Assembly: GCA_947646735.1 (NCBI GenBank)
Contig: CANTFK010000267.1
Coordinates: 102,842 to 166,841, forward strand
Reading direction: 5' to 3'
DNA: 64,000 bases
Source: Peronospora farinosa
Taxonomy: Eukaryota; Oomycota; Peronosporomycetes; Peronosporales; Peronosporaceae
The notes below the pieces were generated by a model, which was not told the DNA's origin, searched no databases, and saw nothing but the letters and a program-made list of their open reading frames with translations. The position numbers were made by a program, and so were the translations under genes. Of this stretch, positions 5,667 through 33,723 are shown piece by piece. Each line of letters begins with the position of its first letter. The first letter of the stretch is position 1.

Positions 5667-6269
5667 TGTAACGGGCTCAAAGTTACACGTCCCCGTTAAG
5701 TATGCGATACTTAACGGGCAGGTCTAAAAAGGTACGTAAGTACTTAAGACCTGTCGCTCGGGTGAGACACACCATGTGTCACACCCTTGCGTATGTGATA
5801 TACACTAGGTGTGTTCACATTGATGGGGATGACGCCCAGCTGGAACTAGGCGTCATCAAATGACGTCAACCAGTTACGTCATTGAGCGAGCTTAAATATA
5901 ATTAAGCTCGCTTGTTGGGATGCGCATCTATAGAGATGGCACCCATCATTACATATTAACCAATCAGTAATTAAATTTATATTTAGTTCTAATTCATTAG
6001 AAATAGCTCAGTCTTGAATTTGCTAAACACTGAAGCACCAAGCACGAGAAGCTGAAAAGCTTTTACGTGACGTCGGTGCTTTAGTGTTAAGAAGTACGTT
6101 GCACTCTCGCTTAAGCGAGAGGCAACTGGTGGTACGACTGCTTAAGCAGTCGACCAACCTCCTAACCACCCTCGCACGCAAAGGTAAGACGGTCTAACCG
6201 CTTCCTCGCTTGTGTTGTGAAGGTGTGTGCTAGTAGCACGAAACAACTTCGTAGGAGTGCCCGTCTACA
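5667..6269 (+). repeat. 5' LTR, type A (603 bp)
   Basis: Begins TGTAACGGGCTC and ends CCCGTCTACA (TG...CA ends). U3 is a row of inverted repeats at about 5692-5718, 5719-5753, 5761-5785, 5793-5820, 5829-5857, 5859-5883, 5885-5913 and 5918-5944. More stems lie in R/U5, for example CTCTCGCTTAAGCGAGAG and CGACTGCTTAAGCAGTCG. R/U5 is nearly identical to that of the type B LTR, while U3 differs strongly. Confidence 0.9.
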
Positions 6270-6271
6270 CT

Positions 6272-6289
6272 TGGTAGCACTAGTAGTCC
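6272..6289 (+). other. primer-binding site
   Basis: TGGTAGCACTAG starts 2 bp after the LTR. TGG matches a tRNA CCA end, and TGGTAGCA matches initiator-Met primer sites of other retroelements. The family N element uses TGGTAGCACTTAG, so both families may use the same tRNA. Confidence 0.65.
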
Positions 6290-6329
6290 TTTCCACGATC
6301 CGTCTCTTTGAGCGTGCGTGTGGATACGG

Positions 6330-7738
6330 ATGGATCTCATCGTGGATTGGGATGACTCCCCTCACCTCTCCCAACATCATAGGGAGTTGGTGAAGCATTT
6401 GGCTCTGGGACTTTCTTGCATTGTCCTCCTGAGCAACATGTTGCTCAGTTGGAGCAATTTGAGGCGTTTGTGCTCGGACAGCGTAGAAACGCGTCCGAGG
6501 TAAACAGCCAAGCCACCGCTGAGTCCATCACTAAGACTCAGGATGAGCTTAGGCTTGAGCAGGCACGTAATGAGGCGCTCAACAGAACTGTTGAGACGCT
6601 CTCTGCCCGGCCTGCTCAACCGAGCCCCATTCGGATGGACCCTCCGAAGTTCGATGGAACTGTCCCTCACACGATTGTTCACTGGCTATTAGCAGTTGAG
6701 CAATGTGGAGTGGCGCAGCTCATCGAAGACGACACCAGAATGGTGTCGTATGCCATGTCCAACTTGCGTGGCAAAGCGTCAGAGTGGGCATACTCTGCGC
6801 TAATTGCTAATGCTGATGCATTTCCATCATGGGCGATCTTTAAGGCAAAGATTCGCGCCATGTATCAGCCGCCTAACAACGAAGTGTTGCTTATGGCGCG
6901 CTTCTTTGGAGCACGACAGGCGAAACGATCTCTGCAAGAATTTGTGCAGGAGATGTGCTCGCTGTCGGCGTCCATTAATGGGGAACCGATAACAAAGCGT
7001 ATCTGTAACGGGGCTAGAACGTACCGTCACTAGCTTACACGCGCGCTCGAGGAAGACTCAAGCCCAAGTATTAGGTATTAAGTAAATTTAACTCTGATTT
7101 TTATTTTGGTTTTAATTCGTACTAATTACGAAGATTTTAGTCGTAATAAATACGACAGTGTTCCCGCCTTTCGGGAACCACACAATTTCAGGTTGATTTA
7201 TCATTGGTCCATATTGGGGACTTTAGGCCCAATAATAAACCAATAATAAATTACCACGCTGTGCCCGCTATTCGGGCCCAGCACCTGCCTACATATGTAA
7301 TTGTTTATTTGTGTTAATGCTATATGTGTAATGTAGCCCATTACAGTATCAAGGTGGCCACGTTCATGAATGGACTTGGGCACAGCCCATCGCGTCAGGC
7401 CCTTTTTCTAAAGGGTGCCAGCGACGATGGAAGAGGCAATTGACATTGCCTTAGTTGAGGAGCAATCCTACAACAGCACCTCGGCGACAGCCTATTACAG
7501 GCCGTCGACCGATAAGTCGGATGCCACTCCTATGGAGTTAGGCAATGCAGATGTTATATGCTACAAGTGCGGCAAGCGAGGCCATATGATGGCTCGCTGC
7601 TATGCCAAAGTAGCTGCTGGTGCTAAGTTGCCCAGCAAAAGGTCTCCCAACCCGAAAGGAGGTGCGAAAAACCAGCGTGCACGACGCACGGGTTCAGAAC
7701 CTGCCCAAGATGAGTCGAGAAATGCGGGAGCGCAGTAG
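6330..7738 (+). pseudogene. gag of Gypsy copy 1 (broken)
   Basis: Retrotransposon gag-type protein. Coding blocks: IDWDDSPHLSQHHRE near the start; DPPKFDGTVPHTIVHWLL; GKASEWAYSAL; FPSWAIFKAKIRAMYQPPN (PF03732-like core); then the nucleic-acid-binding CCHC knuckle CYKCGKRGHMMARC at about 7559-7600. A deletion of roughly 24 bp near 6405 relative to copy 2 shifts the frame, and a 342-bp solo LTR (7004-7345) interrupts the core. The knuckle is intact here but has lost its last Cys in copy 2. Confidence 0.85.
7004..7345 (-). repeat. solo LTR of family N inside gag
   Basis: Begins TGTAACGGGGCTAG and ends GCCCATTACA in plus orientation. It is flanked by exact 5-bp duplications GTATC (6999-7003 and 7346-7350). 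It is the reverse of the LTR at 35000-35350, which is followed by a primer site and so sets the sense strand. Copies 2 and 3 have an empty site here. Confidence 0.93.
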
Positions 7739-7800
7739 GGGCGGGATGCCCTACTGTCGCGGACTCTGAAGCTACCCCTAAGTTCAGAGTGATCTAACAA

Positions 7801-8781
7801 ATGGGTAGCATAGTCCCTGAGGTTCCGAAAGGTCGAACCTCAACCCTTTTGGTCTATAGCGCTCGAGTACGAGGCTATGACCAAGTGATGACCCTTCTCG
7901 TGGATTCGGGTGCATCACAAAACTTTGTGAAACTCGCGGCTCTGAAAAAGAGACCGGCGAGTTATGAGTCGCTTTGCCAGGATGACAAGCGAGAAGAGGC
8001 GATCTTTCGTTTAGAGAACGGCGCGCTCGTTAAATCGGAGGGAGTTCAAGTTGAACTCACCTTCAGTTTCAGTGACTTCTTCTGTAAAGAGAAGTTCACA
8101 GTGCTAGGTATGGAGAGTCCGTATGACCTCATCCTAGGCATGCCTTGGTTGTCTAAACACCAACAATGGATAGACTGGCGTACACGCACAGTCGCTAGCT
8201 CTACGCAAGACACCGGAAAGGATGTGCTCTTGCGAGAGGCTTATGTGGCTGATGCTGTGTCCAACACAGTCGAGGGTGCGATGACGGTATGTCAATCGAC
8301 ACCAGGAACTACCCAGCTCGAAAGGAGTGGTGTAGTTGGAAGTGCACTGGCGGAAAGCCAGGTGACACATATTCCTACCCAGGTCGAAAAGACTGGTGTA
8401 GTGAATGGGGCGATGACAAGTAGTCATGCGTCCAATAGTCCTGCACAGAGCCGAGAGCCTGTGGAAGTTGAGGGTGGGCTGAAAGAAAGTCAAGCGCCAC
8501 AAGAACCGGCACAGAGCCATGAGCCTGGCGCGGTTGGAAGGACTGCTATAGCTGAGATAGCAAAGACACCTTCTTCCAGGTCAAAGGTCGTGGTGATTCG
8601 AAGAACGAGCAACAGACGTATTAAGACGATCAAGGGCACGTCAAAACGAGTGACCCTTGGATCAGTCTCGGTCCAAGAGGACGGACCTACGAACGAGTTG
8701 TTCGAGGCCGTCGAAGACAAAATGACAGAGGCATCCTCAGTTGAGGTGCTACAACTTGTATTGGATATGCCGAGGAGATAG
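7801..8781 (+). CDS. Gypsy aspartic protease domain and linker (copy 1)
   Basis: An open frame of 326 codons. The retropepsin active site is LLVDSGASQNFV (catalytic Asp near residue 35), followed by the flap region and the ILGMPWLSKH block typical of Gypsy proteases. The C-terminal half is a low-complexity linker with imperfect repeats (AMTVCQSTPGTTQLERSGVV, then similar units with THIPTQVEKTGVV and SHASNSPAQSREPV). The frame ends at TAG 8779-8781, just before RT. In copy 3 the RT follows in the same frame, so this stop and shift look like decay. Expression as part of a pol polyprotein is expected from the family. Confidence 0.85.
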   Translation: MGSIVPEVPKGRTSTLLVYSARVRGYDQVMTLLVDSGASQNFVKLAALKKRPASYESLCQDDKREEAIFRLENGALVKSEGVQVELTFSFSDFFCKEKFTVLGMESPYDLILGMPWLSKHQQWIDWRTRTVASSTQDTGKDVLLREAYVADAVSNTVEGAMTVCQSTPGTTQLERSGVVGSALAESQVTHIPTQVEKTGVVNGAMTSSHASNSPAQSREPVEVEGGLKESQAPQEPAQSHEPGAVGRTAIAEIAKTPSSRSKVVVIRRTSNRRIKTIKGTSKRVTLGSVSVQEDGPTNELFEAVEDKMTEASSVEVLQLVLDMPRR

Positions 8782-10330
8782 TAATCCCTCGGAGATGACG
8801 TGGGATCTGTTCCTGTCCGAACTAAAGGAAGGAAAGATCCACCAGATAGTCGCATCAGTTCCAGAAGAGAACGTGGTGGACTGTTGCTCTTCATCCATAA
8901 TGGATGAGAGCGTCTTGGAGACCGACAAAAGGAAACGGTTCGCTGCTCAAGGCTGGGATGCCTTGAAGGACAGCCCGTTCTATGATGTTCTGTGGAAACA
9001 CCGTGATGTGTTTCCAGCAGAAGTGCCGAGCCGCCTACCGGCCGATAGGGGCATCAGGCACGAAATTGACTTGGAGCCTGGCACCAAGTATTGTGTGACC
9101 AGGCAATGGCCGTTGCCGAAGGAACAAGTCGATTACATCGATGAGTTCTTCGACAAGCGAGCTAAGGAGGGACATGTACGTGAGAGCAAGTCACCTCACT
9201 GCAGCCCGACCTTCTGTGTGCGTAAAGAAACAGGTGGATGGCGCGTGGTTCATGCTTATAATAAGCTGAACACGGCCACCATTCCGGCTCAAACGCCGAT
9301 CCCGCGGAAAGATGTCTTGTTGAGTTCCATGGGAAAGTCAACTATCTTTTCCGCGTTGGATCTGAAGGATGGCTACTATCAGGTTCTCATGAGAGATACC
9401 GATGTAAACAAAACGACACTAAGCACCCCAAGCGGTATGCTGTGGGAGTGTCTTATGATGCCACAAGGGTTGAAAAATGCTCCGGAAACATACAACCGAG
9501 TGGTGGCTCACGTGATGCGTCAGCACCGTGCCTACGAGCCCCATTACTTTGACGATGTATTCGTGCATAGTAGGGCGGAGGACGGTCTGAGCGCGATAGA
9601 GTCGCACAAGCGTCATTTAGACGCTGTGTTGCAGACTCTGGGTGACGCCCAATTATATGTAAACTTGCAAAAAGTGCGTAATAGGGGTCCCCGAGATACC
9701 TGTACTGGGCTGCATCGTAGGTGCACACGGTGTACGAGCAGACCCAGAAAAGGTAAAGGCTGTAATGGAATGGCCAGTCCCACGACATGTGAAGGATCTG
9801 CGCCAATTCCTTGGGCTCGCTAATTACTTGCATAAGTACAGCAAGAATTATGCGGAACAGACTGAGCCATTGTCTGAACTTTTAAAAAAGGATACAGAAT
9901 GGACTTGGTCTAAGGAGTAAGTAGATGCGTTCACATCAGTGAAGCAATCTCTGGTAGAAACACCGGTATTGGCATTGCCAGACGCGGATAAGCCCTTTAG
10001 CGTCGTCTGAAATGCAAGCAATTTTGCAATCGGCAGTGCGCTCATGCAGAAGGATGACAGCGGCGTTGACCGTGTCATTTCTTATCAGTCTCGGCTTTTA
10101 AAAGCTGCCGAGCTGAATTACTCTGTGCATGACAAGGAGCTACTTTCAATTAAGTATGCCCTTGTAAAGTTTCGCGTGCACCTCTTGGGCACCAAACCTT
10201 TTGTTGTTTATACGGATCAAGGATCACGCATCACTGCGGACCGCTACAAATTCACCGCACCTCTCGCCTAGAATGGCGAGATGGCTAACATTCTTCTCTG
10301 AATTTAATATCAAAGTTGAATATAAGCCGG
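8741..10330 (+). pseudogene. Gypsy reverse transcriptase and RNase H (copy 1, broken)
   Basis: RT blocks are clear: HEIDLEPGTKYCVTRQWPLP, GHVRESKSPHCSPTFCVRK, GGWRVVHAYNKLN, FSALDLKDGYYQVLM, and the catalytic YFDD at about 9545-9556. A frameshift near 9675 moves the thumb/connection (VKAVMEWPVPRHVKDLRQFLG) to another frame. Stops at 9918 and 10008 and a small insertion near 10216-10225 (YTD-QGSRITADRY where copy 3 reads YTDHASLR) break RNase H. All these lesions recur in copy 2. Confidence 0.9.
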
Positions 10331-12561
10331 GTAAGTCGAATGTCTTGGCTGACGCGTTATCGCGCAGACCAGACTTCGAGGCAAGACACCAGGATAGTGT
10401 GTCTCGTGCGAAAGCGCAAGTTGAGTCGTCAACATTGGCAGCCATGAAGGCCTACCATGTGACGAGCTCAATGGCCTCCGATATAAAGGAGTGTTACAGT
10501 CAGGACGAACATTGTCGCCTGCTGCTGGATCATTTTGGTGGACGAAAAGTTACCCTTCCGTCGCACCTCAAAGCGAAACTAAATCGCTTTAGTTACAGTG
10601 ATGGTCTATTATGGCATCAACTGTCACCCTGTGATCCCTTGAGAATCTATGTCCCTCATGACACAGATCTCAAGCAGATGATACTTCACGAGTGCCATGA
10701 TGCGCCATCTAGTGGGCATCTGGGCCGTGAAAAGACATTCGTACGAGTGTCAGAGGAATTTTGGTGGCCCCACCTATATCGGTGGGTGGCCAACTATATT
10801 CGCTCTTGTGAAGAGTGTCAGCGCATAAAGCCTGCACCTTCGAACAGTGCACCACTGAAGCCACTGCCGATTCCAACTGAATGTTAGAAGTCGGTCAGTT
10901 TGGAATTCATGTTTGGCTTACCGCCTGACCATAAAGGCAGGACGGGGCTCGTCGTCGTTGTAGACAGACTGAGCAAGATGGTGCATTTGGCACCATGTAG
11001 CACCAAGATCTCAGGAAAAGAGGCTGCCCTCTTGTTCCTGGATCACGTGTATCGACTACACGGGATGCCCGAGTCCATAGTATCGGACCGGGATCCGCGG
11101 TTTACGTCGGGTTTTTGGCGACATGTGTTCGAGCTGCTGGGTAGCAAGCTCCACATGTCAACCGCTGATCATCCCCAGACCGATGGCCAAACAGAACGGG
11201 CCAATCGAGTCGTGGCGGATGTGTTGCGTACAATAGCGACTCCTAAAGAATGGAGCAAGCAATTTCCATTCGTGTAGTTCGCTATTAATAACAGTGTTCA
11301 CGCCACTACGGGTGAAACACCGTTTTACATTAACGGAGTGCGTCATCCTCGAACGCCAGTCTCGTTTGTACGCAGCCCGAGGCTTAGTGGGGGAAGGCCC
11401 CTCACTTCGCTCGGTGCGAATGCCAAAGAGGGCCAAGGTTGCCCTAGTGACACTGCTAATTTAGCAGTGGTCACGTCCCCTATAGGTGTCACAGAGGAGG
11501 CACGGCAAGAAATGCCAGCGCTCCTTGATGATGACACTATAGTGTTATTAACAGCGTCGACCCATGAACGACCTCTTGGAGGCGTCATCGGCGAGCTGGA
11601 TGCTAAAAGCGTAAGCGAAGCTCAGCGCTTTGTGGATGAGCGATTAGCCATCACACGTAAAGTTCGTGACGCGATGGCAAGCGCACAGGACAAGCAAAAA
11701 CAATATGCAGACCAGCATGGTCGCAAAAACAATGAACACTTTAGTGTGGGGGACAAAGTGCTATTAAGTACTGCTACCCTACCTAAACATGCAATTTATG
11801 TACTACCTGGTGGTACTACTAAGCTATTGCCCCGATTCATTGGGCCCTTTACAGTGGTTGAAGAAGTTGGAGACCTAAATTATAGGCTCACTCTCCCACC
11901 GTATATGAAGACGCACCCCGTATTTTACGTGGGTCGTCTGAAACGGTATGTTGATCCAGAAGAGATCACATATCCACATCGGTCTAACGAGACCGATGGT
12001 GATGCCGACTGTGAGTCGAGCGTCGCGACCGATCAGGCGACGAGGAAGCCGAAAGGCTCCCCGTGTATGAACGAGGCGATAGAGGACTCGGTGATCGAGG
12101 AGGACTCCGCGCTTGACGTGGGTCTCTCATCACCAGTCGCTCTAAGATGTCCAAACGGGTCTTCAGGCGGTCATACCCCTGACGATCCCTCGCCCTCACA
12201 TCGCGCAGATCCGAAGTCAGTCGCGAGATTTGACTCTCGAGATCTGCCTTCTGCCTTTTCAGCGCATCAGACTCAGCCTGCGACTGAACAGCAGCAGGAT
12301 AGGCAGCCGCGAGTAGGTGGGCGTAATCGCCGCTCCTATCGGGCGCCACCTGTGCTGGTGGACACGGAAGGGAATACGCGCTTCCTTGTTGGAAGGCTGT
12401 TGGCCCACCGGTTTGTGAAGCGAAAGCTCCAAATCCTGGTCCAGTGGAAGGGTTACCCAACGAGCTTTGACTCGTGGGAGCCTGTGGACGCTTTGCGCGT
12501 TGACGTGCCTGGGCTGGTGACTGCTTATGTGAAGCAGCACCAGCTGTCTTCTTTCTGCTAG
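10331..12561 (+). pseudogene. Gypsy integrase with GPY/F module and C-terminal chromodomain (copy 1)
   Basis: The zinc-binding HHCC domain is HDAPSSGHLGREKTF...C-EEC (to 10884). The catalytic core has VVVDRLSKMVHLAP, IVSDRDPRFTSGFW and DHPQTDGQTERANR (DDE). TAG stops at 10885 and 11275 break the frame. The 3' frame (11338-12561) carries the GPY/F module (LLPRFIGPFTVVEEVGDLNY...HPVFYVGRLKRY). A disordered stretch follows, then a chromodomain (LVGRLLAHRFVKRKLQILVQ, WKGYPTSFDSWEP, at about 12385-12500). Chromodomains in chromoviruses steer integration toward histone marks. Bases 11984-12561 are also read by the antisense frame. Confidence 0.9.
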
Positions 12562-13381
12562 GTCCAGAAGGACTAGCAGAAGAAGCGTGGCGAGAATTAC
12601 TTGGGGGTCGCTTACCGCCCATAATTTCATGCGCACGCTTCATGGCGAAGCTGATTCGCTGCGACCGTTGTTTCGTTGCATCTTCCTGCAACGTTACACG
12701 GCGCCGAAGTTCAGCTTCATAGTCGTCGGCTGTTTTGCTAGAACGCAGCACGACTGGAATTGGGAAAGCACGACCAAGTGCTTTGCCCTGCTATTTCCAC
12801 AAGGGAAAGACGCTATAAAATTTATGAGCGTCTATAGTTGCACGCTGCAAAAGCGCTGCGCTAGACCCATCCGAGTTCATCCACTCAGATGGAGGTGGCA
12901 TTGGTGGCAAGCCACCACTCACGTAGCCGCCCTCGCGACGGCGGGCTAGCGAGTCCGAAGGTGTACTTGGTGGAGCTTTAAGCTCACACTTATCTGAGTC
13001 CGACTCTCCATAATGGATTGTCAAAACATCAGCTTGAGAAGTTACATCTGACTGAGTCGCGACTACTCCTTTCGAAGTAGCGCGCTCAGTCTTAGTCGCT
13101 GCGCTCGTAGGCGCAGACGACGAGGTTTTACCTTCGCTTGTAGGAAGGATAGATGCTTCCTCAAGGACGGGTGCCTCAAATGATGGGAACATATGTCCCA
13201 TCAATGCGCTTTGCTCATCTCCACTTTGGGGTGATGGCAATGGCGTGCTCTCATTGTAATCTAAAAAGAGAGATGGATCTTCATCTACATTGTAGTGAGA
13301 TGGAAGATTCGCCTCAGTTACTGAAGCACTTTGCGACGGCTGCGAACAATCGCGGCGCGTGCGCTTAATGTTGGACTGCAT
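11984..13381 (-). pseudogene. antisense ORF of the Gypsy family (copy 1)
   Basis: On the strand opposite gag-pol, a frame opens at ATG 13381 (MQSNIKRTRRDCSQPSQS), about 155 bp inside the 3' LTR, and runs to 11984 with one in-frame TAG (12791-12793). The first 196 codons are Ser/Pro/Glu-rich with a PLPSPQSGDEQSALMGHMFP block and PPMPPPSEWM. The second part (255 codons) has a basic Ala/Ser/Pro/Gln-rich region, a coiled coil (ALKRQKADLESQISRLTSDL..., RLKTRLDILERLV), and an SR-rich tail. It overlaps the integrase/chromodomain frame by 578 bp. No family recognised. The same frame occurs in copies 2 and 3, with a different stop in copy 3. Confidence 0.75.
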
Positions 13382-13521
13382 GGTCGCCTTTGCAGGCGAC
13401 CCATCAGCCTTACTGACGTTTTGGTGGCATGAGAATTGAGTAGACTAAGCGGCGCATGTTATAACGTCTCGCCAGTCTCTCTGTCTCCTGGCGATGTTTT
13501 ACAAGATGTAAAAATCGTTTT

Positions 13522-13535
13522 AAAACGGGGGATGG
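13522..13535 (+). other. polypurine tract before 3' LTR
   Basis: AAAACGGGGGATGG directly precedes the TGTAAC start of the 3' LTR. Copy 2 has AAAAGGGGAGGATGG and copy 3 AAAGAGGGGAATGG at the same place, so the site is conserved as the plus-strand primer. Confidence 0.7.
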
Positions 13536-14134
13536 TGTAACAGGGCATCTAGTTACGCGCAACATTAAGTAATAATATTTATTGTTTGGTCTAAAAGTAT
13601 CCATGATTACTTTTGACCTGTCACTTGGGTGCAATACACAAACGTGATCCACCCTCGTGAATGTGATATCCATTTATGGATTCACATGAGAAAGGATGAC
13701 GCTAGTTGAAGCTAGGCATCGCGACGTCTCAGAAGGACGTCAGTTGCGATCTTAAATCTAGATTAAAGTTCATGCGACAGGATACGCTCCTAAAGAGTCG
13801 CGTATCCGATTTATATACATATACATGCAATCAGTAGTAAAGTTGATATTTAATTATTATTCATTAAATATAGCTCAGTCTTGAATTTGCTAAACATTAA
13901 AGCACCAAGCACGAGAAGCTGAAGAAGCTTCTGCGTGACGTCGGTGCTTTAGTGTTAAGAAGTTCGTTGCACTCTTGCTTAAGCGAGAGGCAACTGGTGG
14001 CACGACTGCTTAAGCAATCTATTTAACCGCATAAACACCCTCGCACGCAAAGGGTAAGACGGTCTGACCGCTTCCTTGCTTGTGATGAAGATGTGTGCTA
14101 GTAGCACGAGGCAATTTTTTAAAAGTGCCCGTCT
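13536..14134 (+). repeat. 3' LTR, type B (copy 1)
   Basis: Begins TGTAACAGGGCATC. U3 is only loosely similar to type A but has inverted repeats in the same order. From TATAGCTCAGTCTTGAATTT onward it is nearly the same as the 5' LTR. It runs to GTGCCCGTCT and then lacks the terminal ACA and any matching target duplication, so its outer edge is truncated. Confidence 0.85.
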
Positions 14135-14520
14135 GATTTAAACAAATATATAGAAACCTTACGCTAACAATTGTACACTACACATATATGTCGACTTCAC
14201 TTATTGCGCGCGTTCATCCTTCGTTAGCTAGCTCGTTGGATGATATTATAGACTTTATCAACCAATCAGAGGGCATCTTTCACTTGCAGGGACAAAATTA
14301 TTTTAAAGATAATCTTGTCGGTTATTTATGCAAATTTATACTCTCATTGGCACTTAAAGTGTGTGCCAACGTCATATAACGAACCCACCTCGTAACGTCA
14401 CTCCTCCCAACCAACAGTCACAATAGTGACTGATTGATTTAGTGACTCCTTCTGGGAAAGGGAAGCATTTGTTGGTCTACTAACTTTTTAACCAACAATT
14501 TTTAAAGCCTGAAGAAATCC
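14135..14520. other. spacer upstream of the split gene
   Basis: AT-rich, with a short frame at 14188-14379 that I cannot place. It should contain the 5' region of the split gene. No element boundary is visible apart from the LTR edge. Confidence 0.4.
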
Positions 14521-15646
14521 ATGCCCGTTGCCAGGAAGGCGGCAAAGAGCTTGGATGCGCGTCGGTGCGTAGCCGCTGATGAGGCTTCACAGCCTCATGT
14601 GGCAGACGATCACTCGTCTGCTGTTGTCAAACATCATCCTGCAATGTTTGTTGCAGGTCCACGTGGCTCGATGCCACGTGATGGTGTTAAACCAAAGTTA
14701 GAGGTTCTCTACTCTGGCGAGTCGGATGTGTCATCCGACTTGAGAACACGTTCAGCGCTCTCGGGTTCGCCCGAGGCGCTGGCTCTTTTCCTTGGGGGTC
14801 ATGGCACGTTGAACAAATCAATGCGCCGTGAAATTTTCGTTTTGTCTTCTAAATTAGACAATCCGCCTTCCGAGCCGAGTGTGTCACACTCGGATCGACA
14901 CGTTGAACGGGATGTCGGTACTTTTATTGACATCATGCAGGAGGACAAAGACCGTGGTGTCTTACTTGCCGATCCAGAGCTCAAACCGTGGACACTGCCA
15001 CAACATCTACTTGATCGCTGGTCTGGAATGACCAGCGATAGTCATCAAATACCATTATTCGATTCATCAAGGCTTCACGGCCTTGACGTCAGTGCGACCA
15101 ACTATGGCACTGAGCATATGTTCTTCATCGATGTTTTCATAAAACATCGATGGTACAGCGTGAATCACAAACGTGAAGGTAACGCGCTGTTGCAAGCCTG
15201 GAATGCGTTTATCCACAACGTGGAATGTGTTGGACGCGAGGCTTGGATAGACAAGCTTGCTGCAACCCGCAGCAAGTTTGAAAAGAGAAACCCAACCGGA
15301 GCACGTTATAAGTTGCATCGATTCTCCAGAGAGGCTGATTTACCATGCCTCTCTTGGGGCGACTCGTGTCCCAGTTGTTTAAACAAATCCAATTGAGCTC
15401 CATAGGAGGCTTACCTTCTTACTGAGCCCTGGTGGCGGGCCCGCATCTCCCCTGAGATGCGTGATGAGATTGCTACTTTGCAATCCCTTTACAAGCGCGC
15501 TAGACGCTCGTTTTTTTATGGACCCTCGATGCCATCGAATAAGCCTCATCGTACTGCTCGAAGAGTCCAAGAACGTCTGTCAGTTATCGAGAACGAGGTT
15601 CCCAGCTGTCTGCCTAAGGTAGATAGCCGCACCACTGGACGAGGTA
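14521..15646 (+). pseudogene. 5' half of the gene split by a Gypsy insertion and inversion
   Basis: Opens at ATG 14521 (MPVARKAAKSLDARR) and stays open for 291 codons to TGA 15394-15396. A second stop (TAG) follows four codons later in the same frame, after which coding-like sequence resumes (MRDEIATLQSLYKRARRSFF, RRVQERLSVIENEVPSCLP) up to the LTR. The last 5 bp before the LTR (AGGTA, 15642-15646) are the reverse complement of TACCT at 5662-5666. The 3' half is at 5157-5666 on the other strand, in the matching frame. Middle region motifs: GTFIDIMQEDKDRGVLLADP, FFIDVFIKHRWYSVNHKREG. Function unknown; possibly a retroelement-derived gene. Confidence 0.78.
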
Positions 15647-16246
15647 TGTAGACGGGCACTTCTACGAAGTTGCCTCGTACTCCGAGCACACACCTTATGC
15701 ACAAGCGAGGAAGCGGTTATACCGTCTTTCCTTCGCGTGCGAGGGTGGTTGGGAGGTTGGTCGACTGCTTAAGCAGTCGTACCACCAGTTGCCTCTCGCT
15801 TAAGCGAGAGTGCAACGTACTTCTTAACACTAAAGCACCGACGTCACGCAGAAGCTTTGCAACTTCTCGAACGTGGTGCGTGTGTTTAAGTAAATTCAAG
15901 ACTGATTTATATTTAATAGATTTTAACTAAATATAAATCTAAGTACTGATTGGTTAATATGTAATGATGGGTGCCATCTCTATAGATGCGCATCCCAACA
16001 AGCGAGCTTAAATATATATAAGCTCGCTCAATGACGTAACTGGTTGACGTCATTTGATGACGCCTAGTTCCAGCTGGGCGTCATCCCCATCAATGTGAAT
16101 ACACCTAGTGTATATCACATACGCAAGGGTGTGACACATGGTGTCTCTCACCCGAGCGACAGGTCTTAAGTACTTACGTACCTTTTTAGACCTGCCCGTT
16201 AAGTATCGCATACTTAACGGGGACGTGTAACGTTGAGCCCAATACA
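15647..16246 (-). repeat. 3' LTR of copy 2, type A (600 bp)
   Basis: In plus orientation it starts TGTAGACGGGCACTTC and ends AGCCCAATACA. It matches the LTR at 5667-6269 in reverse, with the same hairpin row, and is followed inward by the polypurine tract at about 16247-16262. Confidence 0.9.
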
Positions 16247-16401
16247 CCATCCTCCCCTTTTAAAACGATTTTTACATCTTGTAAAACATCGCCAGGAGAC
16301 AGAGAGACTGGCGAGACGTTATAACATGCGCCGCTTAGTCTACTCAATTCTCATGCCACCAAAACGTCAGTAAGGCTGATGGGTCGCCTGCAAAGGCGAC
16401 C

Positions 16402-17799
16402 ATGCAGTCCAACATTAAGCGCACGCGCCGCGATTGTTCGCAGCCGTCGCAAAGTGCTTCAGTAACTGAGGCGAATCTTCCATCTCACTACAATGTAGAT
16501 GAAGATCCATCTCTCTTTGTAGATTACAATGAGAGCACGCCATTGCCATCACCCCAAAGTGGAGATGAGCAAAGCGCATTGATGGGACATATGTTCCCAT
16601 CATTTGAGGCACCCGTCCTTGAGGAAGCATCTATCCTTCCTACAAGCGAAGGTAAAACCTCGTCGTCTGCGCCTACGAGCGCAGCGACTAAGACTGAGCG
16701 CGCTACTTCGAAAGGAGTAGTCGCGACTCAGTCAGATGTAACTTCTCAAGCTGATGTTTTGACAATCCATTATGGAGAGTCAGACTCAGATGAGTGTGAG
16801 CTTAAAGCTCCACCAAGTACACCTTCGGACTCGCTAGCCCGCCGTCGCGAGGGCGGCTACGTGAGTGGTGGCTTGCCACCAATGCCACCTCCATCTGAGT
16901 GGATGAACTCGGATGGGTCTAGCGCAGCGCTTTTGCAGCGTGCAACTATAGACGCTCATAAATTTTATAGCGTCTTTCCCTTGTGGAAATAGCAGGGCAA
17001 AGCACTTGGTCGTGCTTTCCCAATTCCAGTCGTGCTGCGTTCTAGCAAAACAGCCGACGACTATGAAGCTGAACTTCGGCGCCGTGTAACGTTGCAGGAA
17101 GATGCAACGAAACAACGGTCGCAGCGAATCAGCTTCGCCATGAAGCGTGCGCATGAAATTATGGGCGGTAAGCGACCCCCAAGTAATTCTCGCCACGCTT
17201 CTTCTGCTAGTCCTTCTGGACCTAGCAGAAAGAAGACAGCTGGTGCTGCTTCACATAAGCAGTCACCAGCCCAGGCACGTCAACGCGCAAAGCGTCCACA
17301 GGCTCCCACGAGTCAAAGCTCGTTGGGTAACCCTTCCACTGGACCAGGATTTGGAGCTTTCGCTTCACAAACCGGTGGGCCAACAGCCTTCCAACAAGGA
17401 AGCGCGTATTCCCTTCCGTGTCCACCAGCACAGGTGGCGCCCGATAGGAGCGGCGATTACGCCCACCTACTCGCGGCTGCCTATCCTGCTGCTGTTCAGT
17501 CGCAGGCTGAGTCTGATGCGCTGAAAAGGCAGAAGGCAGATCTCGAGAGTCAAATCTCGCGACTGACTTCGGATCTGCGCGATGTGAGGGCGAGGGATCG
17601 TCAGGGGTATGACCGCCTGAAGACCCGTTTGGACATCTTAGAGCGACTGGTGATGAGAGACCCACGTCAAGCGCGGAGTCCTCCTCGATCACCGAGTCCT
17701 CTATCGCCTCGTTCATACACGGGGAGCCTTTCGGCTTCCTCGTCGCCTGATCGGTCGCGACGCTCGACTCACAGTCGGCATCACCATCGGTCTCGTTAG
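16402..17799 (+). pseudogene. antisense ORF of the Gypsy family (copy 2)
   Basis: Mirror of the frame at 11984-13381: ATG at 16402, TAG at 16990-16992, then open again to TAG at 17797. The second part is identical to copy 1 over its 255 residues. The first differs at only a couple of residues (for example FVDYNES against FLDYNES). Charged coiled coil near 17515-17650, SR-rich C terminus. It overlaps the minus-strand integrase/chromodomain frame that ends at 17222. Confidence 0.75.
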
Positions 17800-19452
17800 A
17801 CCGATGTGGATATGTGATCTCTTCTGGATCAACATACCGTTTCAGACGACCCACGTAAAATACGGGGTGCGTCTTCATATACGGTGGGAGAGTGAGCCTA
17901 TAATTTAGGTCTCTAACTTCTTCAACCACTGTAAAGGGCCCAATGAATCGGGGCAATAGCTTAGTAGTACCACCAGGTAGTACAGAGATTGCATGTTTAG
18001 GTAGGGTAGCAGTACTTAATAGCACTTTGTCCCCCACACTAAAGTGTTCATTGTTTTTGCGACCATGCTGGTCTGCATATTGTTTTTGCTTGTCCTGTGC
18101 GCTTGCCATCGCGTCACGGACTTTACGTGTGATGGCTAATCGCTCATCCACAAAGCGCTGAGCTTCGCTTACGCTTTTAGCATCCAGCTCGCCGATGACG
18201 CCTCCAAGAGGTCGTTCATGGGTCGACGCTGTTAATAACACTATAGTGTCATCATCAAGGAGCGCTGGCATTTCTTGCCGTGCCTCCTCTGTGACACCTA
18301 TAGGGGACGTGACCACTGCTAAATTAGCAGTGTCACTAGGGCAACCTTGGCCCTCTTTGGCATTCGCACCGAGCGAAGTGAGGGGCCTTCCCCCACTAAG
18401 CCTCGGGCTGCGTACAAACGAGACTGGGGTTCGAGGATGACGCAGTCCGTTAATGTAAAACGGTGTTTCACCCGTAGTGGCGTGAACACTGTTATTAATA
18501 GCGAACTACACGAATGGAAATTGCTTGCTCCATTCTTTAGGAGTCGCTATTGTACGCAACACATCCGCCACGACTCGATTGGCCCGTTCTGTTTGGCCAT
18601 CGGTCTGGGGATGATCAGCGGTTGACATGTGGAGCTTGCTACCCAGCAGCTCGAACACATGTCGCCAAAAACCCGACGTAAACCGCGGATCCCGGTCCGA
18701 TACTATGGACTCGGGCATCCCGTGTAGTCGATACACGTGATCCAGGAACAAGAGGGCAGCCTCTTTTCCTGAGATCTTGGTGCTACATGGTGCCAAATGC
18801 ACCATCTTGCTCAGTCTGTCTACAACGACGACGAGCCCCGTCCTGCCTTTATGGTCAGGCGGTAAGCCAAACATGAATTCCAAACTGACCGACTTCTAAC
18901 ATTCAGTTGGAATCGGCAGTGGCTTCAGTGGTGCACTGTTCGAAGGTGCAGGCTTTATGCGCTGACACTCTTCACAAGAGCGAATATAGTTGGCCACCCA
19001 CCGATATAGGTGGGGCCACCAAAATTCCTCTGACACTCGTACGAATGTCTTTTCACGGCCCAGATGCCCACTAGATGGCGCATCATGGCACTCGTGAAGT
19101 ATCATCTGCTTGAGATCTGTGTCATGAGGGACATAGATTCTCAAGGGATCACAGGGTGACAGTTGATGCCATAATAGACCATCACTGTAACTAAAGCGAT
19201 TTAGTTTCGCTTTGAGGTGCGACGGAAGGGTAACTTTTCGTCCACCAAAATGATCCAGCAGCAGGCGACAATGTTCGTCCTGACTGTAACACTCCTTTAT
19301 ATCGGAGGCCATTGAGCTCGTCACATGGTAGGCCTTCATGGCTGCCAATGTTGACGACTCAACTTGCGCTTTCGCACGAGACACACTATCCTGGTGTCTT
19401 GCCTCGAAGTCTGGTCTGCGCGATAACGCGTCAGCCAAGACATTCGACTTAC
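17222..19452 (-). pseudogene. Gypsy integrase and chromodomain (copy 2)
   Basis: Same modules as copy 1: HHCC (near 18950-19150), DDE core (18506-18883), GPY/F and chromodomain (17222-18316). It is broken by stops after the HHCC part (TAG near 18896) and after the core (near 18506), at the same places as copy 1. One small difference is CISVLPG where copy 1 has YVLPG. Confidence 0.9.
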
Positions 19453-21982: not shown

Positions 21983-22044
21983 TTGTTAGATCACTCTGAA
22001 CTTAGGGGTAGCTTCAGAGTCCGCGACAGTAGGGCATCCCGCCC

Positions 22045-23138
22045 CTACTGCGCTCCCGCATTTCTCGACCCATCTTGGGCAGGTGCTGAACCCGTGCGTC
22101 GTGCACGCTGGTTTTTCGCACCTCCCTTCGGGTTGGGAGACCTTTTGCTGGGCGACTTAGCACCAGCAGCTACTTTGGCATAGAAGCGAGCCATCATATG
22201 GCCTCGCTTGCCGCACTTGTAGCATATAACATCTGCATTGTCTAACTCCATAGGAGTGGCATCCGACTTATCGGTCGACGGCCTGTAATAGGCTGTCGCC
22301 GAGGCGCTGTTGTAGGATTGCTCCTCAACTAAGGCAATGTCAATTGCCTCTTCCATCGTCGCTGGCACCCTTTAGAAAAAGGGCCTGACGCGATGGGCTG
22401 TGCCTAAGTCCATTCATGAACGTGGCTACCTTTATACGCTCTGGTATCGGTTCCCCATTGATGGACGCCGACAGCGACGCATCTCCTGCCAAATTCTTGC
22501 AGAGATCGTTTCGCCTGTCGTTCTCCAAAGAAGCGCGCCATAAGCAACACTTCGTTGTTAGGCGGCTGATACATGGCGCGAATCTTTGCCTTAAAGATCG
22601 CCCATGATGGAAATGCATCAGCATTAGCCATTAGCGCAGAGTATGCCCACTCTGACGCTTTGCCACGAAAGTTGGACATGGCATACGACACCATTCTGGT
22701 GTCGTCTTCGATGAGCTGCGCCACTTCACATTGCTCAACTGCTAATAGCCAGTGAACAATCGTGTGAGGGACAGTTCCATCGAACTTCGGAGGGTCCATC
22801 CGAATGGGCCTCGGTTGAGCAGGCCGGGCAGAGAGCGTCTCAACAGTTCTGTTGAGCGCCTCATTACGTGCCTGCTCAAGCCTAAGCTCATCCTGAGTCT
22901 TAGTGATGGACTCAGCGGTGGCTTGGCTGTTTACCTCGGACGCGTTTCTACGCTGTCCGAGCACAAACGCCTCAAATTGCTCCAACTGAGCAACATGTTG
23001 CTCAGGAGGACAATGCAAGAGGTTGACCAGGGCTTGTTTACCAAGTTTCAGAGCCAAATGCTTCACCAACTCCCTATGATGTTGGGAGAGGTGAGGGGAG
23101 TCATCCCAATCCACGATGAGATCCATCCGTATCCACAC
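22045..23138 (-). pseudogene. gag of Gypsy copy 2
   Basis: The N-terminal and core part is open from 23138 to about 22450, longer than in copy 1 because it lacks the deletion and the solo LTR. A frameshift near 22480 (LQEFGRRCVAVGV) separates it from the knuckle segment at 22045-22368. The knuckle reads CYKCGKRGHMMARF, so the last zinc ligand is lost. Confidence 0.85.
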
Positions 23139-23186: not shown

Positions 23187-23787
23187 TGTAGACGGGCACT
23201 CCTACGAAGTTGTTTCGTGCTACTAGCACACACCTTCACAACACAAGCGATGAAGCGGTTAGACCGTCTTACCTTCGCGTGCGAGGGTGGTTGGGAGGTT
23301 GGTCGACTGCTTAAGCAGTCGTACCACCAGTTGCCTCTCGCTTAAGCGAGAGTGCAACGTACTTCTTAACACTAAAGCACCGACGTCACGCAGAAGCTTT
23401 GCAACTTCTCGAGCGTGGTGCGTGTGTTTAAGTAAATTCAAGACTGAGCTATATTTTAAAGAATTTAACTAAATATATACTTGACTACTGATTGCATGTA
23501 TATGTATATAGATCGGATACGCGACTCTTTAGGAGCGTATCCTGTCGCATGAACTTTAATCTAGATTTAAGATCGCAACTGACGTCCTTCTGAGACGTCG
23601 CGATGCCTATCCTCAACTAGCGTCATCCCTTCTCATGTGAATCTATAAATGGATATCACATTCACGAGGGTGGATCACGTTTGTGTATCGCACCCAAGTG
23701 ACAGGTCAAAAGTAATCATGGATACTTTTAGACCAAACATTAAATATTATTACTTAATGTTTACGTGTAACTCGATGCCCTGTTTCA
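23187..23787 (-). repeat. 5' LTR of copy 2, type B (601 bp)
   Basis: Starts TGTAGACGGGCACTCC at the inner side, with the primer site TGGTAGCACTAG on the minus strand just inside (near 23173-23184). It ends CCCTGTTTCA at 23787. U3 matches the type B LTR of copy 1 and the partial LTR at 40876-41231. Confidence 0.88.
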
Positions 23788-25070: not shown

Positions 25071-25080
25071 TTCGGTCACA

Positions 25081-29990: not shown

Positions 29991-32330
29991 ACACAAGGCG
30001 CACGCGCCACGATAACACGGAGCCGTCGCTATGTGTCTCTGTGACAACGCCGACATCTACTGTCCGCTTGTCAGCAGAGAACACTGGTCTATCCCACTAC
30101 CGTGCGGATGAAGATGTGGTGAAGTGGTTTTCTAAATTGTGAAGAGCCCAGGGGCCAGTTGGATTGAAGGGACAAGGGGACGTGGGCTAGGGAGAAGGGA
30201 CCACGCACCAGAGAGAAGTGATCGGAGATAAGGGAACCTCGAAGTGAAGCGACCGTTGGCTAAGAATTTGAGAGACACACAAAGGAGAGGTCATTACCAG
30301 GGTACTGTTTGACCGGTACCGAAGGGAGTCGACCATGGCCCTCATTGGTCGTCCCGGTCCATCATTGGTAGACCCAGGTCCCTCGTCGGTAGACCCAGTC
30401 CCCCATCGGTCGACCCGGTCCCTCGTTAGTAGACCTGGGTCCCTCATTGATCGACCCGGTCCCTCGTTGGTAGACCTGGGTCCCTCATTGGTCGACCCGG
30501 TCCCTCGCTGGTAGACATGGGTCCTTCATTGGTCGACCCGGTCCCTCGCTGGTAGACCTGGGTCCCTCATTGGTCGACATGGGTCCCTCATTGATCGACC
30601 CGGTCCCTCTTTGGTCGACATGGGTCCCTCATTGATCGACCCGGTCCCTCTTTGGTAGACCTGGGTCCCTCATTGGTCGACCCGGTCCCTCGCTGGTAGA
30701 CATGGGTCCTTCATTGGTCGACCTCGGCCCCTCGGGGCTCAGCCACTCCTGACCAGTTGATACAAGGATCAGACTAGTCGACGCAAGGAATCAGAGCTTC
30801 AGGCAAGGATAGAGTAAAGGAGTTAAAAGGATAGGACTATATAAAATACTACTCAATTTGCGATCTACGTGGCACGACTCCGTCACCCAAGAAGAACTTG
30901 CTCTAAGCTACTCACTGTTCCGGGAAGGGATATATTTTGGCCCCCCGTCGAAGACAGTTGCGTAGCAAAGTTCAAGGGCGAATAGAGCTCCAGGATATAT
31001 TTGGCCTGTGAGCTCGTTCGAGTAGCAACACCCCCCAAGACCCGCTATCGGAAGCGGTATCCCTCACCTTAAGGTCCGGGAGCAACGTAAAGGTCAGGTG
31101 GTTAATACCCCTGAAACAAGAAGGAAAAGGCCAGGGACGACAAGCTTCCTGAAGAATTTGGCTCTAAGTCCACTCTCGACAAGGTCGATCGAGTGGCCAC
31201 CTACCGGCCCACCGAGTGAAGCATATCCACTCGAGGCTCCCCAGGTCTACCTCCCTCAAGATAGACTCTACATCGTCACCAAGTTCTCCGAAGAGTGCAA
31301 CCCGCCAGCCGACGGGTACACAAGGTGAGAGAAGGTTCATACGCGGCATCGGGGTACCCCCTCCGACAGTCGGCAGTCCGGCACAGTGAGTGGTTTGGGG
31401 TCTCATCATACAATTTTGAGAACCCACTCCACCACAAAGACTTGTCTCTCATTGTTGACTACAATGAGACTATGCCATTGCCATCACCCCAAACTGGTGA
31501 TGAGTACAAAGCTTTAATGGGACATTTTTCCACATCATCTGAGACACCCAATCTTCAGAAATTTTCCATGCTTTCTGACAGCGAGGTTCATGCCTTGTCG
31601 TCTGCGCCAACGAGCGCAGCGACCACAACTGAGCGCGCTGCTTCGAAAGAAAAGCCGCGACTCAGCAGCAGTTCGGCGATTCTAAATTGACCGCCTCTTT
31701 CAACGCTACGTCTGACGTCTTGACAATCCATAATAGAGAGTTAGACTCAGGCGAGGGTGAGAAAAAGCCCCTTTGACTTCACTGTCGGCCTCACTAGCTC
31801 GCCGTCGCGAGTGAAGCTTCGGAGTGATGGTTTGCCAACGATGCCACCACCATCCGAGTGGCCACGATGGCGTGTAAATAGTGTGACGCTTTTAAGGCTT
31901 TCCACTATTGACGCTAATAAACGTTTTAGCGTCTTTCAATCATGAAAGAGGCAGGGCAAAGCCCGAGGTCGTGCTTTACCTATCCCCGTCGTGCTGCATT
32001 CAGATGAAACAACCGACAAATACGAGGTAGAGTTCCTTCGCCGTGTTACACTCATGTAGATGCAGTGAAACAGCGGTCGCATCCAACCTGCTTCGCTATG
32101 ACGTGTGCGAGGAAAATATTGGGTGATAACATGCCCCCAACTCTTTCTCGATACGCTGCCACTGCTAGTCCATCAGGACCAAGCAGAGCGAGTGCAGCTG
32201 ATGCTTCTGCTCGTAAGAAGCCACAAGCAGAGGCAAGTCGATGCGCAACGCGTCAACAGGCTCCCATAATTCGAAATTCTTCGATAGATCCTTTTAGCTG
32301 GACAAGGATCTGAAGCTTTTGCTTCACATG
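29991..32330 (+). pseudogene. antisense ORF relic of Gypsy copy 3
   Basis: Opens at ATG 29991 with MQTNTRRTRHDNTEPS, matching MQSNIKRTRRDCSQPS of the other copies. It is interrupted at 30138-31412 and resumes with DYNETMPLPSPQTGDEYKAL, SSAPTSAATTTERAASKEK and MPPPSEW. A TGA at 31943-31945 falls three codons before the position of the TAG in copies 1/2, and the frame reads through the other copies' TAG position. Many differences from copies 1/2 are silent in this frame. Further stops follow near 32057. Confidence 0.7.
30138..31412. mobile_element. insertion with 20-bp tandem repeats, possibly a large solo LTR
   Basis: Interrupts the antisense frame of copy 3. It starts TGTGAAGAGCCC and ends TCATCATACA, so TG...CA ends, but no clear target duplication is seen. 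About twenty imperfect 20-bp units (GGTCCCTCATTGGTCGACCC and variants) fill roughly 30337-30735. A TATA-like TATATAAAAT follows at 30838. U3-like repeats before a TATA box suggest a solo LTR of another family. Borders are uncertain. Confidence 0.55.
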
Positions 32331-32606
32331 GCGGTGGGCCAACAATCTTCTAACAATGAAGAGTGTATTATTACCCACATCCACCAACATAGGTAGCGCC
32401 CGATAAGAGCGGCAATTACGCCCAACTATTTGCGGCTGCCCTTCTGTTGTCGTTCAGTCGCAAGCGGAGAGCGTTGCGGTGAAGAGAGAGGCGGCTGATC
32501 TTTCAAGTCAAGTCTCGCGACTGAATTCGGATCTACGCTCTGTATATATGAGGGACTGTCAGGGCATGACCGTCTAAGCTCTGTCTGGAACTACATGAGC
32601 GAATGG

Positions 32607-33723
32607 CTATAAGAGGTCCACGTCAAACACGGATTCCTCCTCGATCACCGAGTCCTGTGTCGTCTCTTTATTATATGGAAAGTCGTTCGGCTTCCCCGTC
32701 GCCTGATCGACAACGACGCTCGACTCATAGTTGACGTCACTATCGGTCTTGTTAGACTGATGCAAATATGTGAGATCTTGTGGATCCACATACCTTCAGA
32801 CGACCCAAGTAAAATACGGGGTGCGTCTTCATATACGGTGGGACAGTGAGCCTATAATTTAGGTTTCCAACTTCTTCAACCACTGTAAAGGGCCCAATGA
32901 ACCGGGGCAATAGCTTAGTAGTACCACCAGGCAGTACAGAAATTGCATGTTTAGGTAGGGTAGCAGTACTTAATTGCACTTTGTCCCCCACACTAAGTGT
33001 TCATTGTTCTTGCGACCATGCTGGTCTGCATATTGTTTTTGCTTGTCCTGTGCGCTTGCCATCGCGTCACGGACTTTACGTGTGATGGCTAATCGCTCAT
33101 CCACAAAGCGCTGAGCTTCACTCACGCTTTTAGCATCCAGCTCGCCGATGACGCCTCCAAGAGGTCGTTCATGGGTCGACGCTGTTAATAACACTATAGT
33201 GTCATTCATCAAGGAGCGCTGGCATTTCTTGCCGTGCCTCCTCTGTGACACCTATAGGGGACGTGACCACTGCTAAATTAGCAGTGTCACTAGGGCAACC
33301 TTGGCCCTCTTTGGCATTCGCACCGAGCGAAGTGAGGGGCCTTCCCCCACTAAGCCTCGGGCTGCGCACAAACGAGACTGGCGTCCAAAGATCGCGCAGT
33401 CCGTCGATTCAAAATGGTGTTTCACCCGTACTGGCGTGAACACTGTTATTTATAGCAAGCTACACGAATGGAAATTGCTTGCTCCATTCTTTGGGAATCG
33501 CTACAGTACGCAACACATCCAACACAACTCGATTGGCACGTTCTGTTTGGCCATCAGTTTGGGGATGATCAGCGGTTGACATGTGGGGCTTGCTTCCCAG
33601 CAGCTCAAACACATGTCGCCAAAACCCCGACGTAAAACGCGGATCCCGATCCGATACTATGGATTCGGGCATCCCGTGTAGTCGATACACGTGATCCAGA
33701 AACAAGAGGTCAATCTCTTAATC
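32607..33723 (-). pseudogene. integrase C terminus and core relic (copy 3)
   Basis: Contains the GPY/F module (LLPRFIGPFTVVEEVGNLNY), the stretch upstream of it, and the DDE core (IVSDRDPRFTSGFW, DHPQTDGQTERANR), in several frames. The chromodomain region further left is no longer open. Confidence 0.85.

What the first reader, a model, noticed from the sequence alone, without database searches (positions are those of the whole stretch)
11984..13381. Conserved antisense ORF overlapping the integrase/chromodomain end of a Gypsy family
In three copies (11984-13381 minus, 16402-17799 plus, 29991-32330 plus) a frame of about 466 codons starts about 110-155 bp inside the 3' LTR and runs against gag-pol, overlapping the chromodomain frame by 578 bp in the intact arms. 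The start, PLPSPQ-GDE and PPPSEW blocks and a coiled coil are kept. Comparing copy 3 with copies 1/2 where no sense frame overlaps, many differences fall on third antisense positions (CCT/CCA, ATC/ATT, TAC/TAT, GAG/GAA, ACA/ACG). Antisense genes are known in a few plant LTR elements and in deltaretroviruses, but I know of none described for an oomycete chromovirus. Function could be regulation, RNA binding or an accessory gag-like role (inference).
Basis: partly seen in the sequence, partly recalled or inferred. Interest (0 to 1): 0.9.

Follow-up and report, generated by a model that had tools for sequence, protein, structure and literature searches.

The report
Antisense gene in downy-mildew Gypsy retrotransposon
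A family of Gypsy retrotransposons in a downy mildew carries a second gene written backwards across the end of its main gene, its sequence differences show the mark of selection to keep the protein, and the protein is predicted to work in the nucleus, where it likely regulates the element.

Summary
The frame is real and is a gene, though the window's copies are broken: copies 1 and 2 carry an in-frame TAG at codon 197 and have lost the true start (MPPKR..., 16 codons upstream); copy 3 is decayed. Outside the overlap, variants private to one copy look neutral in the antisense frame (N/S 0.94), as do those in exactly two (1.23); those in three or more do not (0.42; 70 of 136 at third positions). 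In the overlap the constraint is split: pol over the chromodomain, the antisense frame over the coiled coil. Relatives at 47-62% identity exist, and distant sense and antisense proteins can be read from one DNA in the same phase (164 of 164 codons). The ORF starts about 106 bp inside the element, not in the LTR. Antisense genes at this place are known in plants and fungal Boty; an oomycete one with a long dual-coded overlap is a new variant. Nuclear regulation is inferred; expression is untested.

The parts
11984..13381 (-).
16402..17799 (+). Antisense ORF, copy 2 (broken in the same way; inverted near-identical copy)
13428..13430 (-). ATG matching the start codon of intact family members (MPPKR), out of frame with the rest in copy 1
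16353..16355 (+). The same ATG in copy 2
31301..32755 (+). Decayed remnant of the antisense ORF, copy 3 (about 69-80% identical to copy 2)
12620..12937 (-). Segment for the conserved core (residues 165-270 of 481), free of pol's frame
   Evidence: coordinates computed from the L005 numbering
12128..12331 (-). Segment for the predicted coiled coil (residues 367-434), overlapping pol's linker
   Evidence: coordinates computed from the L005 numbering
11338..12561 (+). Sense pol frame, copy 1: integrase tail (SH3_Tf2-1) and chromodomain
12388..12534 (+). Chromodomain (PF00385), copy 1; lies opposite antisense residues 299-347
   Evidence: mapping
17222..18316 (-). Sense pol frame, copy 2
13536..14139 (+). 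3' LTR of copy 1 (end approximate)
15647..16246 (-). 3' LTR of copy 2
5667..6269 (+). 5' LTR of copy 1
23187..23787 (-). 5' LTR of copy 2

Best explanation
This is a second, antisense gene of a chromodomain-bearing Gypsy retrotransposon family of a downy mildew, overlapping pol tail to tail, whose variants shared among three or more copies show the mark of purifying selection and whose predicted nuclear coiled-coil product likely regulates the element's own expression or nuclear RNA traffic. Shown by calls: an open frame of about 481 codons in many copies; codon-level constraint in the antisense frame outside the overlap; constraint divided between the two strands inside the overlap; relatives at 47-62% identity; the same overlap and phase in distant relatives. 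Predicted: a basic N-terminus that looks like a bipartite nuclear signal, an acidic SP-rich motif, a helical core, a coiled coil, and an arginine-serine-rich tail. Inferred: an antisense transcript starts in or next to the 3' LTR, the protein enters the nucleus, dimerises through the coil, and acts on the element's RNA or DNA, the way HBZ or other retroviral accessory proteins act.
For: Selection: free part, N/S by copies carrying the variant: one 0.94 (306N/115S), three or more 0.42 (72N/61S; Fisher p 1.1e-4), five or more 0.34; codon positions 33/33/70 in the three-or-more class. With five near-twins dropped: one 0.99, three or more 0.35 (p 1.4e-6), five or more 0.38. In scan windows from x=722 on, past the ORF's end, the antisense frame gives 1.04-1.55 and pol's frame 0.50-0.80, for variants in two or more copies. 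Overlap, three or more copies: chromodomain segment pol 0.25, antisense 2.80; coil and tail segment antisense 0.46, pol 1.12. Relatives: 14 hits; 26 hits. Distant overlap: P0030 x P0021 164 of 164 doubly compatible codons, P0040 x P0021 144 of 144, control pair score 180 over 190, 48 shuffles at most 11. The same DNA: coil segment antisense 40/67 identical against pol 20/67; chromodomain pol 36/49 against antisense 22/48. Predicted helix 367-434, block pLDDT 72-92 over residues 381-430. Tail with 14 RS/SR/SP dipeptides in 60 residues, reached by 0 of 5000 shuffles.
Against: No expression evidence was available. Variants in exactly two copies show no constraint (free part 1.23; 1.13 with twins dropped), the two-or-more class is weak (0.71, p 0.094), and one of four scan windows touching the free part shows none at that level (0.96). 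In the overlap pol's frame gives 1.51 for private variants in the coil segment (antisense 0.85), so its neutral level is not 1 there. 72 of 150 listed copies of pol's tail have no listed antisense match beside them (capped lists). A recalled oomycete start-site motif pair was found in 0 of 70 leaders and 3' LTRs in either direction, which is uninformative. No Pfam or NCBIfam match over a curated cut-off, only weak coiled-coil-like ones, and no PDB relative. AlphaFold is poor overall (mean pLDDT 46.6 and 47.3). The nuclear signal and RS-like tail were judged by eye and composition.
Confidence: 0.55

Rival explanations
1. A real antisense protein gene, but with a structural or integration role: a gag-like nucleic-acid binder or a nuclear-import factor of the pre-integration complex.
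For: Basic N-terminus, coiled coil and RS-rich tail fit nucleic-acid binding; it travels in the same element as a chromodomain integrase.
Against: The element has its own gag with Retrotrans_gag and a CCHC knuckle; no similarity of the antisense protein to the 205-residue gag piece compared (best E 2.1). Antisense expression suits regulation better than stoichiometric packaging (inference).
Confidence: 0.2
2. The antisense RNA is what matters (silencing or interference); the protein is only tolerated.
For: Antisense transcripts from LTRs often act as noncoding RNA (PMC10186651, abstract and passages). sRNAs map to both strands of LTR elements in Phytophthora infestans (PMC3522703, passages).
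Against: RNA-level constraint would not concentrate on one reading frame: 70 of 136 shared variants fall on third codon positions and N/S is 0.42 in that frame; the frame is kept in relatives at about 50% identity.
Confidence: 0.06
3. A chance open frame, or a by-product of constraint on pol, in a young repeat family.
For: Copies are about 97% identical over most of the region, so an open frame in many of them could be inherited; window copies are broken.
Against: 289 codons of the frame lie where the three sense-strand frames of copy L005 hold 8, 9 and 16 stops; 0 of 20,000 shuffles stay open; frame-specific constraint; overlap kept in distant relatives.
Confidence: 0.03
4. A captured host gene carried as cargo, with its own promoter and no role for the element.
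For: Gene capture is known for LTR elements (PMC7264820, passages).
Against: The gene is locked into pol's coding sequence by a dual-coded overlap.
Confidence: 0.08

Closest known systems
Plant antisense additional ORFs between pol and 3' LTR (aORF-3R / eORF-3'R): maize Grande gene23, rice RIRE2, Silene Retand, PvRetro13
   Same: Same side of the element and orientation, described as present in most copies, unknown or nuclear function, SMC-like or DNA-binding-like products, tandem repeats near by in Retand (PMC7264820 passages and sections 5 and 7, PMC11963269 passages).
   Different: They are described there as lying between pol and the LTR, Retand being a non-chromovirus lineage; here the last 192 codons lie on top of pol's chromodomain and linker. 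No Transposase_28 match.
brtn, the antisense gene of Boty-like elements of Botrytis cinerea
   Same: Antisense extra gene of an LTR element in a microbial plant pathogen (Zhao et al. 2011, seen only as a reference title in PMC8365987, and as a mention of Boty in PMC7264820).
   Different: Sequence not available here, so homology was not tested; host is a fungus; whether it overlaps pol was not seen.
HBZ of HTLV-1 and other retroviral antisense genes (APH-2, HIV-1 ASP)
   Same: Antisense genes controlled from the 3' LTR (PMC10186651 abstract and passages; HBZ reviews as search listing). That HBZ is nuclear with a leucine zipper and that ASP lies opposite a sense frame is partly recalled.
   Different: No bZIP match here; no shared family found; retrotransposon, not retrovirus.
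Chronos and Archon Gypsy elements of oomycetes
   Same: Oomycete Gypsy elements, Chronos with a chromodomain (PMC5348765, passages).
   Different: Chronos has a second RNase H; only the ordinary one was found in the pieces read here. The word antisense does not occur in that paper's main text.

Membership tests
Antisense additional ORF of LTR retrotransposons (aORF-3R / eORF-3'R) | ORF antisense to gag-pol, in the 3' part next to the 3' LTR | tested here: met
   in distant relatives (leader, by eye)
Antisense additional ORF of LTR retrotransposons (aORF-3R / eORF-3'R) | At least 250 codons (threshold of Neumann et al., PMC6317226) | tested here: met
   about 481 codons; one open frame spans nearly all of it in 22 of 70 copies
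Antisense additional ORF of LTR retrotransposons (aORF-3R / eORF-3'R) | Present in most copies of the family | tested here: inconclusive
   at least 149 places; 78 of 150 listed pol tails have a listed antisense match beside them, both lists capped
Antisense additional ORF of LTR retrotransposons (aORF-3R / eORF-3'R) | Present in related elements of other species | tested here: met
   P. effusa and 13 unnamed relatives
Retand TRP28 antisense proteins | Transposase_28 domain (PF04195) | tested here: not met
   not among matches up to E 10 of 10 family members (filters drop most above 0.1); none in the genome, but that search rang in no control genome either
HBZ-type antisense regulators | bZIP domain | tested here: not met
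   no bZIP family among matches; only weak zipper-like ones under their cut-offs
HBZ-type antisense regulators | Transcript from an antisense promoter in the 3' LTR | not testable with these tools
   no RNA data; motif scan uninformative
Boty brtn | Sequence homology to brtn | not tested
   no brtn sequence at hand
Chromodomain-bearing Ty3/Gypsy element | gag, protease, RT, RNase H, integrase with SH3-like tail and C-terminal chromodomain, LTRs | tested here: met
   (in broken pieces)
Chromovirus clade (RT phylogeny) | RT groups with chromoviruses | not tested
   no reference tree was built
Chronos (oomycete) | Second, archaeal-type RNase H | tested here: inconclusive
   only RT_RNaseH found between RT and integrase, but the frame is broken there

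The most novel reading that the evidence does not exclude
An oomycete retrotransposon lineage independently invented an antisense nuclear regulator by overprinting the disordered linker of its own integrase: the coiled coil of the new protein was written opposite the linker, and the chromodomain sits opposite the new protein's disordered stretch, so each strand keeps its folded part. It would work like HBZ or Rev, and it would be one more origin, beside plants, fungi and deltaretroviruses, of regulators read back from the 3' LTR.
Probability: 0.35. Interest if true: 0.8.

Novelty: new variant of a known kind. Interest (0 to 1): 0.62.

Why it matters
In the papers seen here, antisense genes of LTR elements come mostly from plants, and their function is called unknown. 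Here there is codon-level evidence at two depths of time, and a stretch of nearly 200 codons that serves two proteins with constraint divided by segment. If the nuclear regulator reading holds, the same solution arose in deltaretroviruses, plants, fungi and oomycetes, which would make 3'-LTR antisense control a general feature of LTR elements and not a retroviral oddity. The gene is also listed as an unnamed protein product in Peronospora genomes and should be masked as transposon.

Tried and rejected
Viral contigs: no relative. Other families in the same genome: queries P0013 and P0014 gave 89 scored hits each, at 43-53% identity to the queries, and no family nearer to those queries than the known one. 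Homology to the element's gag piece: none. Transposase_28: none. PDB: one chance hit, E 0.67. Fold of the core: two AlphaFold jobs, poor, so no fold search was run. Promoter motif, recalled from memory: 0 of 70. Other frames: in the free part the minus frame that shares the wobble position also scores low for variants in three or more copies (0.56; 0.44) but holds 8 stops in L005 and was rejected. Third-position excess against copy 3 alone was judged too weak to rest on. Literature searches for an oomycete antisense retrotransposon gene; the titles, abstract openings and passages seen describe none; most subscription papers are not held.
Full report
WHAT WAS CLAIMED AND WHAT IS THERE. The window holds two Gypsy elements in inverted orientation, about 5667-14139 (+) and 15647-23787 (-), with bodies 99% identical. 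gag, CCHC, protease, RT, RNase H, H2C2, integrase core, SH3_Tf2-1 and chromodomain are found in broken pieces (the integrase core just under its cut-off). Against pol runs the frame at 11984-13381 (-) and 16402-17799 (+), overlapping pol's last frame by 578 bp. Both copies carry TAG at codon 197. The 3' LTRs begin at 13536 and 16246, so the frame is internal, not in the LTR. Copy 3 at 29991-32330 is not open; its remnant lies at about 31301-32755.

THE FAMILY. The window is G000:C57 of a 46.85-Mb assembly. A database protein named Peronospora farinosa sits on a contig of 643,695 bases (P0033), the length of G000:C183, so the genome is very likely P. farinosa. The C-terminal 255 residues match 149 places, a lower bound. 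I fetched the 70 best ranked. In 22 of 70 copies one open frame spans from that codon's place to within 20 codons of the usual stop; in two of the 22 (L060, L064) the first ATG is the later one. 21 of 69 keep pol's tail frame free of stops by position, without correction for indels; 4 have both. Of 150 listed places for pol's tail (the 215 residues before the overlap), 78 have an antisense match on the other strand within 2.5 kb among the listed places (47 of the better-scoring 75, 31 of the other 75). Both lists are capped, so the missing 72 are not shown to lack the gene.

SELECTION. I aligned the 70 copies and sorted variants by how many copies carry the minor allele: private ones arose mostly after insertion and should be neutral, shared ones passed through active elements. 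In the free part (codons 1-289; 728 variants: 436 in one copy, 156 in two, 136 in three or more) the antisense-frame N/S against the private spectrum is 0.94, 1.23 and 0.42, and 0.34 for five or more. Fisher test of three-or-more against private: p 1.1e-4; third positions 70 of 136, binomial p 9.8e-6. Within the core (codons 166 to 289) the five-or-more class gives 0.19 (10N/18S). Dropping one of each of five near-identical pairs gives 0.99, 1.13, 0.35 (p 1.4e-6) and 0.38. The two-copy class shows no constraint and the two-or-more class is only 0.71 (p 0.094); I read two-copy variants as mostly young, but this is a post hoc reading. A window scan over two-or-more variants gives 0.58, 0.67, 0.96 and 0.66 in the four windows touching the free part, and 1.04-1.55 in the windows from x=722 on, where pol's frame takes over at 0.50-0.80.

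DIVIDED CONSTRAINT IN THE OVERLAP. For variants in three or more copies, the chromodomain segment has pol 0.25 (6N/9S) and antisense 2.80 (15N/2S); the coil-and-tail segment has antisense 0.46 (35N/31S) and pol 1.12 (50N/17S). Private variants in these segments give antisense 1.18 and pol 1.41 (chromodomain), antisense 0.85 and pol 1.51 (coil and tail), so pol's level under no selection is above 1 here and some constraint on pol's linker is not excluded. In the overlap as a whole the antisense frame goes from 0.90 (private) to 0.60 (three or more; Fisher p 0.14) and 0.40 (five or more; p 0.025). The same split appears at a much greater depth: between the window family and the P0030/P0021 pair the coil segment is 40/67 identical in antisense and 20/67 in pol, the chromodomain 36/49 in pol and 22/48 in antisense. 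P0036 with P0012 or P0013 agrees: coil antisense 45/67 and 42/67 against pol 32/64, chromodomain pol 36/49 against antisense 22/49 and 17/49. P0035 with P0019 agrees for the coil (41/66 against 24/66); over the chromodomain its cut-off sense protein gives pol 11/18 against antisense 27/49. P0040, the fifth pair made, shares its antisense partner with P0030 and gives nearly the same numbers.

RELATIVES. Searches found 14 and then 26 proteins: 13 named, all unnamed products of P. effusa or P. farinosa, and 13 without a name. P0008 is 62% identical, P0012-P0015 47-50%. The N-terminal MPPK motif, the acidic DPSLIVDYNES motif, the core and the coil are kept in the alignments. No hit is named Phytophthora, whereas pol relatives there are many (206 hits, 120 listed); only the candidates sharing most words were scored, so this does not show absence. 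Upstream of the start, P0012 and P0025 read through a stretch that resembles, by eye, the translation of the LTR edge and leader of this family.

A TEST WITHOUT DNA. The distant relatives are known here only as proteins. I asked whether a sense protein and an antisense protein could come from one DNA, letting the script choose codons and scoring compatible codons along every register, in the phase found for the window pair (12 sense by 8 antisense proteins). Control pair: score 180 over 190 codons. P0030 with P0021: 164 of 164. P0040 with P0021: 144 of 144. P0035 with P0019: score 121 over 151. P0036 with P0012: 81 over 91. 48 shuffles: at most 11. Of the other pol relatives tested, P0052 (Phytophthora) and P0067 (another P. 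farinosa protein) gave at most 14; P0042, P0043 and P0046 gave 10-25, nearly all over the chromodomain. So the tail-to-tail overlap in this phase exists in distant relatives and is not seen in these pol proteins of other families. The linker between SH3 and chromodomain is about 103-212 residues long in ten relatives, so a long linker is not special to elements with the overlap; overprinting of an existing linker is a fair inference.

THE PROTEIN. No family match over a curated cut-off, no solved relative. AlphaFold gives a long helix at 367-434, well scored over 381-430 (block pLDDT 72-92), and about 70 for one helix at 251-270; the rest is poor, and a second run on the core alone is poor throughout. 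The first 40 residues carry net charge +4 to +8 with two basic clusters in the five relatives examined; the last 60 are rich in S, P, R, H with 7-16 RS/SR/SP dipeptides. I read these as a nuclear signal and an RS-like tail; both are predictions.

HOW IT LIKELY WORKS. Antisense transcription from the 3' LTR or leader, a nuclear dimer, and action on the element's own RNA or chromatin. The first step is inferred from place; the second from motifs and the coil; the third from analogy to HBZ and to the nuclear product of Grande gene23 (PMC7264820, section 7). I give about 0.9 to a selected antisense protein gene and 0.55 to the regulatory reading.

KNOWN AND NEW. Antisense ORFs between pol and the 3' LTR are established in plants (passages of PMC7264820, PMC11963269, PMC6317226) and in Boty of Botrytis (brtn, seen as a title and a mention). 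The oomycete survey PMC5348765 does not use the word antisense in its main text, and the passages seen of PMC3522703 and of the brown-alga survey PMC12477816 describe none (the latter mentions an opposite-strand gene in a DNA transposon). New here are the host group, the long dual-coded overlap with the chromodomain and linker, and the codon-level evidence. Searches behind the statement that I found none in print for oomycetes.

MODULAR EXCHANGE. Between copy 2 and copy 3, pol is 89-99% identical, but from about 17825 towards the LTR identity falls to 69-80%; the break lies about 26 bp past the antisense stop codon. One case is not a rule, but it suggests that antisense gene, chromodomain and LTR can be swapped as a block.

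Noticed in passing
5667-6269, 13536-14139, 15647-16246, 23187-23787: LTRs look swapped between the two inverted elements: 5' LTR of copy 1 is 92.7% like the 3' LTR of copy 2, and 3' LTR of copy 1 is 90% like the 5' LTR of copy 2, while each element's own pair is only 77-80% alike (mostly in the first 360 bp); the five bases TACCT flank copy 1 on the left and copy 2 at its 3' end. This fits an inversion by recombination between the two elements; no matching pair of flanks was seen at the other two ends.
   Followed up: partly
7346-13529 and 16254-22437: Bodies are 99% identical although even the best-matching LTRs differ by 7-10%, which suggests gene conversion between the inverted arms.
   Followed up: no
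G000 contigs C273, C18, C215, C255, C262, C46: Six other pairs of copies lie 4-8 kb apart in the same convergent orientation with equal or nearly equal scores, like the window's pair; C39 holds one pair in the other orientation.
   Followed up: no
17825 / about 32780: Sharp drop in identity between copies 2 and 3 just past the antisense stop codon: a mosaic element.
   Followed up: partly
[quoted passage not shown]
   Followed up: no
14521-15396 +: A 291-codon ORF in the spacer between the two elements has 210 matches in the genome (134 candidates scored), many in frames of 400-650 codons; no Pfam match.
   Followed up: partly
24235-29686 and 45179-50658; 41300-43508 and 43534-45742: Two further large direct repeats, 97.5% and 95% identical, not identified.
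   Followed up: no
2412-3140 + and 59239-61794 +: Host-like genes towards the window's ends: a Folate_rec match and a phosphoinositide 3-kinase.
   Followed up: no
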